The notes beneath the pieces are model-generated. The model saw nothing but the letters and a program-made list of their open reading frames with translations, was not told the origin of the DNA and did not search any database. DNA of 61,002 bases from an uncultured Anaerolineae bacterium. Lineage in GTDB: Bacteria > Chloroflexota > Anaerolineae > CG2-30-64-16. Both the position numbers and the translations under genes were made by a program. Each line of letters starts with the position of its first letter. The stretch's first letter is position 1. Below are positions 895-6,698 of the stretch, one piece after another. The DNA lies in NCBI GenBank assembly GCA_937124585.1, contig CAKZKT010000129.1:1-61002 (forward strand), read 5' to 3'.

Positions 895-2538
<1,644 letters not shown>

Positions 2539-2635: not shown

Positions 2636-2923
2636 TTAAGCCAACACGGCCAGGATGTCAGACTCGCGCAGGATCAACAGCTTCTTGCCATCCAGCTTGA
2701 TCTCAGTGCCAGAGTATTTGGCATACAGCACCCGGTCACCGACCTTGACTTCCATTTCGACGCGCTTGCCCTGGTCATCGGTGCGGCCGGGACCGGTAGC
2801 GATGATCTTGCCCTGCTGGGGCTTCTCCTTTGCGGTCTCGGGCAGGATGATGCCACCGGCGGTGACCTCTTCCTGCTCGATCGGTTCGACGACGACACGA
2901 TCAGCGAGTGGCTTGATGTTCAT
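2636..2923 (-). CDS. groS: Co-chaperonin GroES (Hsp10)
   Basis: 95-aa co-chaperonin that caps the GroEL ring. The sequence starts [14 protein letters not shown] and contains the mobile-loop region [18 protein letters not shown] (about residues 22-39) that docks on GroEL, then the beta-barrel core ending in ESDILAVLA. Full family length. It is the first gene of the operon; an AGGAGG ribosome site lies 7-9 nt before the ATG. Regulation is visible directly: a near-consensus promoter and two overlapping CIRCE-type operators lie just upstream. Confidence 0.98.
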
Positions 2924-2968
2924 AGTCCAACAGCCTCCTATGTTTTATGGTGATGGAAATATCGGATT

Positions 2969-2995
2969 TTAGCAGTCTCTCATCGCGACTGCTTA
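2969..2995. promoter_or_regulatory. CIRCE-like operator variant (second HrcA-type site)
   Basis: TTAGCAGTC-N9-GACTGCTTA has the same half-site length and N9 spacer as CIRCE, with the seventh base of the left arm changed C to G and the matching base of the right arm changed to C, so that pairing is kept. It has one other mismatch (8 of 9 positions pair). It shares TTA (2993-2995) with the canonical site next to it. HrcA binding is inferred. Confidence 0.6.
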
Positions 2996-3019
2996 GCACT
3001 CTACTTCCTTGAGTGCTAA
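2993..3019. promoter_or_regulatory. CIRCE operator (HrcA binding site)
   Basis: Exact TTAGCACTC-N9-GAGTGCTAA, the consensus CIRCE inverted repeat bound by the heat-shock repressor HrcA. It sits at about +2 to +28 relative to the predicted groESL start site, so bound repressor would block transcription initiation or clearance. Confidence 0.97.
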
Positions 3020-3027
3020 CGGCGCTG

Positions 3028-3056
3028 ATTGTACTCAAGATGGGCGAAGTCGTCAA
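3028..3056 (-). promoter_or_regulatory. groESL promoter
   Basis: On the minus strand, TTGACG (3051-3056), a 17-bp spacer and TACAAT (3028-3033) form a near-consensus housekeeping-sigma promoter. The expected start site is near 3021, immediately before the CIRCE element. Confidence 0.85.
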
Positions 3057-3171: not shown

Positions 3172-3190
3172 ACGTGTCGGGCACTCTACA
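3172..3190. repeat. Truncated family-A palindrome (left arm only)
   Basis: ACGTGTCGGGCA followed by CTCTACA repeats the left arm of the element 46 bp before it. The right arm is missing, and the sequence runs into the stop codon (3186-3188) of the ATPase gene. Confidence 0.5.
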
Positions 3191-4595
3191 AGCCCCGCCC
3201 CTTCCGCGCAATCCGTTTCGCGGCCTGTTGCGTCTCGCTGCCCCGATAGCTGGGCACCGTGATCGCCAACACCGTGCAGCGCGCTTGATCCAACATGCGG
3301 CTGCCCAGGCGCGGCTCTTTTTTCAAGATGTCCTCGATGCTATCCGAGGTGGTGATCACGGTCGGCAGGCGAGCGGCATAGCGGTAATTAAGCAGCTGAA
3401 AGAGCTTTTCGCGTGCCCAGGGAGTGGCACTTTCGGTGCCCAGGTCGTCCAGAATCAGCAGCGGCGTGGTCTTCACCTGCTCGAACAGCCGATCGAGCGG
3501 GGTGGTGCTCTGCGGGCTGAAGGTGGCCCGCAGGTGATCGAGCAGATCGGGGACGACGACGAACATGGGCATGGGCCGGCCCAGCACCCGCTGCTGATTG
3601 GCGATGGCCGCGGCCAGATGCGTCTTGCCGCAGCCGAACCGTCCGGTGATCACCAGCCAGCCAGCCGGCGATTCAGCATAGCGGATGGCCAAGTCTTTGG
3701 CCCGACGCAGGTTCTCGCGCTGCTCCGGGATCTCGAGCTCGGCCGTGCGCAAGGTGAAGGTGTCAAATGTCTGGTCGGCGTGCAGGCTCAGCGTGCTGAG
3801 GCTGGCCGTGCCGCGTTCGACCCCTGGCTGACGAAAATCCGGCGTAAGGATCTCGACCACCCGACTCAGGTCGGGGTCCTCCAGCCGCGAGGCGATGCGG
3901 GGATCCAGCTCGTCGAGCCGCTGATTGGAGGTGATGACGGTCGGCAGACGGCTGTTGTACCGATAGTTCAGGATCTGGAAGAGTTTTTCCTGCGCCCACG
4001 GCGTCGTATTGTGCGCGCCCAGGTCATCGAGGATTAGCAGGGGCGCATCGCGAATCGCCTCCAGACGCTCGTCGTAGGTGACAGTGCTGGTGGGCGCATA
4101 GGTGGCACGCAGGTGATCCAGCAGGTCGGGCACGACGACGAAGAGCGCTTGGCTGCCCAGCATGACGCGAAAGTTGGCGATGGCCGCGGCCAGGTGGGTT
4201 TTTCCGCACCCGTAGCCGCCCAGCAAAACCAGCCAGCCGCGCGGTTCGCGCGCAAAGTCCAGGCTGAGCTCATAGGCGGCGCGCAGGTTGGGCCGCAGAG
4301 ATTCGGGCGCCGCGTTCGGGTCGAAGCTGTCGAAGGTCATCCGGTTCAACGCGCCGAGATTGCTCATCTGCTGCAGGCTGCGCAGGCGTTCAGCGGTCAG
4401 CCGCGCCTGGGTACAGCGACAGGGCACCGTCTTGCTGAAATCCGGATGGCCCGGCGGCACATCGTAGGTCAAGAAGCCACGGCCTTTGCAGATGGGACAC
4501 ACTTCGTCGGCCGGCGGCTGGTGCTGCGACGGCTCGACAGGCCGTTTCTGTTCCGGCTGCGACGGAATGCTCAGAAGATCGCTCAGGCGTTTCAT
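3186..4595 (-). CDS. DnaC/DnaI-type helicase loader with two tandem ATPase domains
   Basis: 469-aa protein that probably loads the DnaB helicase. Residues about 33-61 hold four cysteines (CPICKGRG and VPCRC) resembling a zinc finger. Two AAA+ domains of the DnaC/IstB type follow: the first with [16 protein letters not shown] (about 126) and LLILDDLG (about 186), the second with [17 protein letters not shown] (about 317) and LLILDDLG (about 379). Both keep Walker A, Walker B, a sensor-I-like T(S/T) and an SR arginine finger. Normal loaders are 240-330 aa with one domain, so this is an internal duplication. The ATG at 4595 follows an AAGGGG site; a TTG lies 18 nt upstream. It follows the DnaD-like gene by 14 nt. 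An IstB transposition role is unlikely, as no istA is present. Confidence 0.85.
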
Positions 4596-4609
4596 CGTGA
4601 ATGACCCCT

Positions 4610-5341
4610 TCAATGCTCGATCAGGTCCTCAAACCCTTTGGGCACATAGTAGCGTTCCAGCTCCTCGCTGCTGAGCGGTTCGGCCGCGGTGGGCCGACTC
4701 ACGCCGCGGCCCTGGATGCGCCAGCGTTCCAAAATGGCGCGCACATATTTCCAGTTGCGCCGGTTCATGGCCACCGCTTCCCGAAATGCATCCGCGATCC
4801 AATCCGCAGGATAATGACGCTCGGCGTCGCGCAATTCGTTGGCAATCATCGGGGTCAGCAGGCCGATGTTCTGCTCGTAGAGGACGAAGATGGCCGGCCG
4901 TTCGACCTGAAGCTGGACATCTTCGGCGACGTCGGCCAGCACATCCAGCTCGCCTGCCCGCAGCTTTTCAACCACCTCGCGACCGTTGGCGCTGTTGACC
5001 ATGTACCACTCTTCGCTCACGTCGCCGCGATGTACCGTCAGATGAAGCAGCGCGCCGCGCGCGACCGCACGCTCCAGCGCATCGCGCAGCAGCGTCTCGG
5101 CCACAGGCCGCTCTGCCGAGAGCCCGGCCAGCAAGCGATCGTCTTTCAGCAGCTCGTCAAGGCGCGCATAGCGCAGCGCACCCGTCTTGCGGCCAATCAG
5201 CCAGAAGAGATGCAAGATCACTTTTAGCTCGGCCAGATTGTCAATCAGCGGCAACAGGTCGCTGAAGAACAGATTGGGAATCGGCGTGACGGCCAGTTTG
5301 CCGGCCGGAAAGCCCGGAAAACCCTGCATGGACTCGTTCAT
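4610..5341 (-). CDS. DnaD-like replication initiation protein
   Basis: 243-aa protein with an N-terminal winged-helix-like region (about 20-110, starting [20 protein letters not shown]) and a C-terminal DnaD/DnaB-II module in which [10 protein letters not shown] and YVRAILERW match the YxxxI...W signature of the family. DnaD-family proteins remodel origin DNA and help recruit the loader and replicative helicase. It lies between dnaB and the loader gene, with only 13-14 nt on either side, so the three are almost certainly co-transcribed as a primosome cluster. The ATG at 5341 has a weak ribosome site; an internal Met four codons later is the alternative. Confidence 0.82.
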
Positions 5342-5354
5342 CTTCGACTCGAAA

Positions 5355-6698
5355 TCAGTAACCCAACGGCTCTTTGGTCAGTTCCAGATCGGCGAAGCGA
5401 GTGAGCGCCTTGTCGAAGTAGAGCGGCACCGTGTCGGTGGGGCCATTGCGATGCTTGGCCACGATGACATCGGCGATGTTCTTGCGCTCGCTGTTCTCTT
5501 TCACCGCGTCCTCGCGGTAGATGAACATCACAATATCGGCGTCTTGTTCGATGCTGCCGCTGTCGCGCAGATCGGACAGGATCGGCTTGTGATCGCCGCG
5601 CGACTCGACGGCGCGCGAGAGCTGAGAGAGCGCGATCAGCGGCACTTCCAGCTCGCGGGCCAGGCTTTTCAACGAGCGCGAGATGTAGCTGATCTCCTGG
5701 ACGCGGTTTTCGGTGCGGGTATCGCTGCGCATGAGCTGAAGATAGTCCACAATGACCATGTCCAGCCCGTGTTCGGCCTGCAGGCGCCGGGCCTTAGTAC
5801 GCAGCTCCAGCGCCGAGACCGCCGGCGTGTCGTCAATGAAGAGCAGGGTTTCCGAAAGCACGCCGGCCGCTTCCATCAGGATCGGCCACTCATCGTCGTT
5901 GATCTCGCCCAGCCGCAGCCGCTGCTGGTTGATGCCGGTCTCCGCAGCGAGCAGGCGCTGCACCAGTTGCTCGCTGCTCATCTCCAGGCTGAAGAAGGCC
6001 ACGCGCTGGCCGTAGCGTTTGGCCGCGTTCACCGCGAAATTGAGCGCCAGGCTGGTTTTGCCCATGCCCGGCCTGGCCGCCAGGATGATCAGGTCCGATT
6101 TCTGAAAGCCGCCGAGCAATTTGTCGAGCTTGGTGAAGCCGGACGGCACCCCGAGCAGCTCTCCCCGGTGACGATGCAGGTAGTCCAGCCGATCCACGAC
6201 CGCGTGCATGATCTGGCGCACGGGCGTCAGATCACGATGGATGCGCCGCTCCGAGACGTTGAAGATCAGCTGCTCGGCGCGATCCACGACTTCGTCCACG
6301 TCTTCGGCCTCTTCGTAGGCCAGCGCGGCGATCTGCCCGGCCGCGCCGATCAGCCGGCGCAGGGTGGCCGTGCGCTCGACGATGTGCGCGTAATGCTCGA
6401 CGTGGACGGCCGTCGGAACGCTGTTGATGAGGGAGGTGATATAGGCTGCGCCGCCGACCTGCTGGATCTGATCGCGGCGCTCCAGCTCATCCACGAGGGT
6501 GATGAAGTCCGCCGGCTCGCGACGCTCGTGCAGGTCCAGGATGGCCTGATAGATCCAGCCGTTCTTCTCGCGATAAAAATCGTCCGGCTTCAGGAACGAG
6601 GCAACTTTGATGATCGCATCCGGGTCAATCAGAAGCGATCCCAAGACGGCCTCTTCTGCCTCGGGGTTCGCCGGAATCGTCTTGTCGGGCGTGTTCAT
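5355..6698 (-). CDS. dnaB: Replicative DNA helicase DnaB
   Basis: 447-aa hexameric helicase that unwinds DNA at the fork. The N-terminal DnaB domain (about 10-110, with [18 protein letters not shown]) leads by a linker into the RecA-like motor with Walker [14 protein letters not shown] (about 208), Walker B VDYLQLM and the region [19 protein letters not shown]. Length and motifs are typical and no intein interrupts the Walker A site. It is the first gene of the dnaB-dnaD-loader cluster, read on the minus strand. The 170 bp upstream, before the nuclease gene, show no clear promoter, so read-through from that gene is possible. Confidence 0.97.

What the first reader, a model, noticed from the sequence alone, without database searches (positions are those of the whole stretch)
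2969..3019. Two overlapping CIRCE-type operators on groESL, the second with a paired base change
A perfect CIRCE (TTAGCACTC-N9-GAGTGCTAA) is directly preceded (downstream for the transcript) by TTAGCAGTC-N9-GACTGCTTA, which has the same geometry and shares TTA with it. The C-to-G change at the seventh arm position is matched on the other arm, so symmetry was kept. HrcA normally uses a single or separated CIRCE; an overlapping variant could give graded repression, bind a second HrcA dimer or a paralogue with altered specificity, or be an RNA hairpin in the 5' leader.
Basis: partly seen in the sequence, partly recalled or inferred. Interest (0 to 1): 0.62.

Follow-up and report, generated by a model that had tools for sequence, protein, structure and literature searches.

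The report
Overlapping double CIRCE operator before groESL
The chaperone genes groES-groEL of this Chloroflexota bacterium carry two overlapping copies of the heat-shock switch CIRCE; the second, slightly altered copy looks like a real extra binding site for the same repressor, HrcA, and similar double switches occur in several other bacterial groups.

Summary
A perfect CIRCE (2993-3019) overlaps by 3 bp a second palindrome (2969-2995, 15/18 matches; about 0.008 expected per window). The pair lies just downstream of a good sigma-70-type promoter for groES-groEL. The best reading is a second, probably weaker HrcA operator.

Evidence: (1) In 103 Chloroflexota hrcA operators, arm position 7 is the one variable core position and G its commonest substitute; the second element changes exactly there. 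(2) A related genus keeps the second core at 12/12 bases while the two spacers keep 5/18. (3) An exact scan of about 85,000 species genomes for this 24-bp overlapping arrangement gave 13 loci in several phyla, all before groES or hrcA-grpE-dnaK. (4) In another Chloroflexota family the paired-G form itself brackets the groEL promoter. (5) The genome has one hrcA, so no paralogue is needed.

Six of seven family relatives have only the perfect CIRCE, so the second site is lineage-specific. RNA pairing is not what is conserved: position-7 changes are mostly one-sided. HrcA binding, simultaneous occupancy and graded repression are untested. Two CIRCEs at one promoter are already known (L. lactis dnaK), so this is a variant of a known kind.

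The parts
2993..3019 (-). Perfect CIRCE, TTAGCACTC-N9-GAGTGCTAA, promoter-proximal operator
   Evidence: 0 mismatches; present in all 8 readable family f1 groES leaders
2969..2995 (-). Variant CIRCE, on the coding strand TAAGCAGTC-N9-GACTGCTAA; second operator overlapping the first by 3 bp, both arms C to G at position 7
   Evidence: 15/18 matches; core 12/12 conserved in G005; same register before groES in other lineages
3051..3056 (-). -35 hexamer TTGACG of the groESL promoter
   Evidence: Consensus scan, 10 of 12 matches with a 17-bp spacer; similar hexamers at this place in other f1 leaders
3028..3033 (-). -10 hexamer TACAAT; start site inferred near 3021, so the operators cover about +3 to +53
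   Evidence: Consensus scan; start site is inference
2934..2939 (-). Shine-Dalgarno AGGAGG of groES
   Evidence: Sequence, conserved in f1 leaders
2636..2923 (-). groES, 95 aa
   Evidence: ORF; found by protein search in 56 of 60 relatives searched, 79-87% identical in family f1 apart from one 73% copy
895..2535 (-). groEL, 546 aa, same operon
   Evidence: ORF; 90% identical over 544 aa in G005

Best explanation
The region is a double HrcA operator. The single HrcA of this genome binds the perfect CIRCE at the groESL start site. It also binds, probably more weakly, the overlapping variant CIRCE immediately downstream. The second site raises repressor occupancy over the start and extends the block into the first ~50 transcribed bases, giving tighter repression when unstressed and release on heat shock when HrcA loses activity. 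Shown: geometry, conservation, recurrence, and position-7 tolerance. Inferred: HrcA binding to the variant, its weaker affinity, and the effect on repression. Open: whether two dimers sit at once or alternate; C. jejuni HrcA covers 30-40 bp (PMC7464140), so neighbours 24 bp apart would crowd each other.
For: Second element keeps the CIRCE geometry and 15/18 letters. In 206 half-sites of Chloroflexota hrcA operators position 7 has 33 of 44 core substitutions, 19 of them G, and the variant differs in its core only there. Core 12/12 identical to G005 against 5/18 in the spacers, Fisher p=8.7e-5. All 13 loci of an unbiased scan of 84,980 species genomes lie before groES (12) or hrcA-grpE-dnaK (1). 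21 of 400 phylum genomes (this one included) have the register, all before groES. Paired-G sites bracket the groEL promoter in family f90. One hrcA in the genome, with a perfect CIRCE of its own.
Against: Six of seven family f1 relatives manage with one CIRCE, and only two of 396 class genomes have this register, so it is dispensable. The conservation test rests on one pair of genomes. No binding data. A 30-40 bp HrcA footprint may not allow both sites to be filled. Paired CIRCEs elsewhere occur at many registers without helical phase, so no special 24-bp complex is indicated.
Confidence: 0.78

Rival explanations
1. The second palindrome is kept as an RNA hairpin in the 5' leader, for mRNA stability or translation control, and HrcA does not use it.
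For: The leader RNA is predicted to fold as two hairpins, z=-4.25. Several f1 relatives without the second CIRCE have an unrelated stem further down the leader, which G000 and G005 lack.
Against: Position-7 changes do not keep pairing: in hrcA operators 19 are one-sided, 6 two-sided non-complementary, 1 complementary; in 31 tandem loci 20 one-sided and 3 G/G. The letters kept are those of an HrcA half-site. The leader matches no Rfam family.
Confidence: 0.1
2. The second palindrome is a decaying or neutral duplicate of the first CIRCE with no effect.
For: Absent in most relatives; the last three bases have already changed in G005 (CAG for TAA).
Against: Core unchanged between genera while the spacers have diverged; the same arrangement recurs in unrelated lineages only at chaperone promoters.
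Confidence: 0.1
3. The variant is read by another regulator, such as an HrcA paralogue with altered specificity.
For: The change is paired, and in family f90 paired-G sites sit at the groEL promoter.
Against: Only one hrcA here, and one in each of eight other tandem-bearing genomes (none found in a ninth, the 1.3-Mb G446). Mixed C/G sites are common at hrcA's own promoter. An unrelated regulator was not searched for.
Confidence: 0.02

Closest known systems
CIRCE/HrcA operator of groE and dnaK operons (Bacillus subtilis type)
   Same: Inverted repeat TTAGCACTC-N9-GAGTGCTAA at the start of groESL, with hrcA in the genome
   Different: Here a second, changed element overlaps the first by 3 bp
Two CIRCE elements at the Lactococcus lactis dnaK operon (PMC1676014) and the L. 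plantarum hrcA operon (PMC3842655)
   Same: Two CIRCE elements at one chaperone promoter
   Different: The passages read do not say that the two elements overlap each other, and they concern dnaK/hrcA rather than groESL
Streptococcus thermophilus groESL CIRCE, TTAGCAGTT-N9-GAGTGCTAA (PMC3192767)
   Same: G at arm position 7 in a predicted CIRCE of a heat-induced groESL operon
   Different: Single element, change on one arm only

Membership tests
CIRCE element (second element) | 9-bp arms TTAGCACTC / GAGTGCTAA with a 9-bp spacer | tested here: inconclusive
   Geometry exact, 15/18 letters; two of the three differences at the tolerant position 7, one forced by the overlap
CIRCE element (second element) | Placed at the promoter/start of groESL or hrcA-grpE-dnaK | tested here: met
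   Between a sigma-70-type promoter and groES
CIRCE element (second element) | hrcA present in the genome | tested here: met
   One hrcA, Pfam PF01628, E=1.7e-47
CIRCE element (second element) | Bound by HrcA and needed for repression | not testable with these tools
   Needs gel shift, footprint and reporter assays
HrcA paralogue system | Second hrcA gene | tested here: not met
   One match in an assembly 99.8% complete
Known structured RNA leader (Rfam) | Match to a curated RNA family | tested here: not met
   Only a chance plant miRNA match far below its gathering score, inside groES on the other strand

The most novel reading that the evidence does not exclude
Overlapping CIRCE pairs are a distinct operator class in which two HrcA dimers compete for or share neighbouring sites at the start site. 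This would give a stepped or steeper heat-shock response than one CIRCE, and it would have evolved independently in Chloroflexota, Acidimicrobiia and candidate phyla.
Probability: 0.25. Interest if true: 0.55.

Novelty: new variant of a known kind. Interest (0 to 1): 0.38.

Why it matters
CIRCE is usually treated as a single, nearly invariant operator. These data show that close and overlapping pairs recur at groE promoters, and that arm position 7 is the tolerant core base in Chloroflexota. A sequence search of the PDB found only apo HrcA of Thermotoga (1STZ), so the natural C/G/A series at position 7 and the overlapping pair are ready-made test sites for how HrcA reads DNA and how operator number sets the heat-shock threshold.

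Tried and rejected
HrcA paralogue: one hrcA only. Rfam leader elements: none. Helical phasing of paired CIRCEs: distinct registers of 23-51 bp show no significant phase, Rayleigh p about 0.18 for Acidimicrobiales and 0.79 for all. Single origin of the tandem in family f1: GroEL and HrcA trees unresolved; GroEL weakly pairs G000 with G002, not G005. Shine-Dalgarno sequestration as an RNA thermometer: predicted in G000, but the pairing partners differ among f1 leaders. A first attempt to search relatives of an Acidimicrobiales locus failed because a genome handle was needed and was redone.

Full report
Observation. The window holds a perfect CIRCE at 2993-3019 and a second palindrome at 2969-2995, TTAGCAGTC-N9-GACTGCTTA, sharing TTA. 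They are the only two places in 61 kb with even 12 of 18 matches to CIRCE; about 0.008 sites with 15 or more would be expected by composition. On the coding (minus) strand the order is promoter TTGACG-17-TACAAT, perfect CIRCE, variant CIRCE, Shine-Dalgarno, groES, groEL. The start site, inferred from the -10 box, falls near 3021, so the pair covers about +3 to +53.

Repressor. The genome has one hrcA, in hrcA-grpE-dnaK, with a single perfect CIRCE. Its N-terminal DNA-binding region resembles that of family members that have only one CIRCE at groES. A paralogue with altered specificity is therefore not supported.

What the base change means. Of 111 hrcA upstream regions (110 across the phylum plus this genome), 103 contained a CIRCE-like site scoring at least 14/18. 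In the 206 half-sites, core positions 4, 5, 6, 8 and 9 together show 11 substitutions, whereas position 7 shows 33 (C173, G19, A14). The variant in the window changes exactly this core position on both arms. Sites were chosen by overall score, which limits how many mismatches are counted but not where they fall. In family f90, GCAGTC-N9-GACTGC sites bracket the groEL promoter, with the -35 box inside one spacer. A published S. thermophilus groESL CIRCE also has G at position 7 (PMC3192767).

Relatives. Between G000 and G005 the second core is 12/12 identical and the two N9 spacers 5/18 (Fisher p=8.7e-5). In 396 genomes of the class only these two have this register; two members of f124 have a 26-bp register at hrcA. 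Trees of GroEL and HrcA do not resolve G000 and G005 as sisters, so one gain, two gains or losses remain possible.

Recurrence. An exact-pattern scan of 84,980 species genomes for two C/G-tolerant cores in the 24-bp overlapping register returned 13 loci whose record titles name Chloroflexi, Actinomycetes, Acidimicrobiia, Peregrinibacteria/Peribacteria, Dormibacteraeota, a Clostridiales and a gammaproteobacterial MAG. Twelve lie before groES and one before hrcA-grpE-dnaK. In 400 genomes of the phylum 21 match, this one included; 18 are in family f61 and 2 in f86, all before groES. In Acidimicrobiales 37 of 198 genomes carry CIRCE pairs 23-51 bp apart; 29 of the 30 loci read lie before groES or groEL, and the reversed-pattern control found none. 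Registers vary and show no helical phase, so the overlap is one of several arrangements. Loci within a family are not independent, and MAG names are only as good as their binning.

RNA or DNA. The leader folds as two hairpins (z=-4.25), as any transcribed palindrome pair would. Pairing is not what evolution keeps: position-7 changes are one-sided in 19 hrcA operators and two-sided but non-complementary in 6, against 1 complementary; in 31 tandem loci they are one-sided 20 times and paired G/G 3 times. Half-site recognition by HrcA explains this; a required RNA stem does not.

Mechanism and limits. The most likely working is extra HrcA occupancy at the start site. C. jejuni HrcA covers 30-40 bp over the start site (PMC7464140), so dimers 24 bp apart might crowd or exclude each other; whether both bind at once cannot be told from sequence. 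Binding, affinity and effect on expression are inference.

Known or new. Two CIRCE elements at one promoter are known (L. lactis dnaK, PMC1676014; L. plantarum hrcA, PMC3842655). Searches for overlapping, tandem or double CIRCE in the held open-access papers found no description of CIRCEs overlapping each other at groESL, but most subscription papers are not held. I rate it a new variant of a known kind.

Noticed in passing
L070, L071, L073, L074, L075 (groES leaders of family f1): Relatives with a single CIRCE have a leader stem of differing sequence 24-28 nt after CIRCE (for example GCCCAG-tca-CTGGGC, GTCTGGC-tc-GCCAGAC, GCCCGC-tct-GCGGGC); G000 and G005 lack it and have the second CIRCE instead. 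Covariation was not formally tested.
   Followed up: partly
L110-L114 (family f90): The groEL promoter is bracketed by two CIRCE-like sites 44 bp apart, mostly of the GCAGTC/GACTGC type, with the -35 box inside the upstream site's spacer.
   Followed up: partly
L240-L249, L253-L272 (Acidimicrobiales): Pairs of CIRCE sites at groES or groEL promoters are frequent (37 of 198 genomes), in registers from 23 to 51 bp, many with G at position 7.
   Followed up: partly
L048, L049 (family f86): In groES leaders a second, more diverged palindrome (CCGGTC-N9-GACCGC; CCAGTC-N9-GATCGC) sits in the same 24-bp register after a perfect CIRCE.
   Followed up: no
window 3186-4613 (-): The ORF upstream of groES looks like two tandem copies of a DnaC-like AAA+ domain (repeated [13 protein letters not shown] and [14 protein letters not shown] motifs), next to a DnaB-like helicase gene (5355-6698). 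Judged from sequence only.
   Followed up: no
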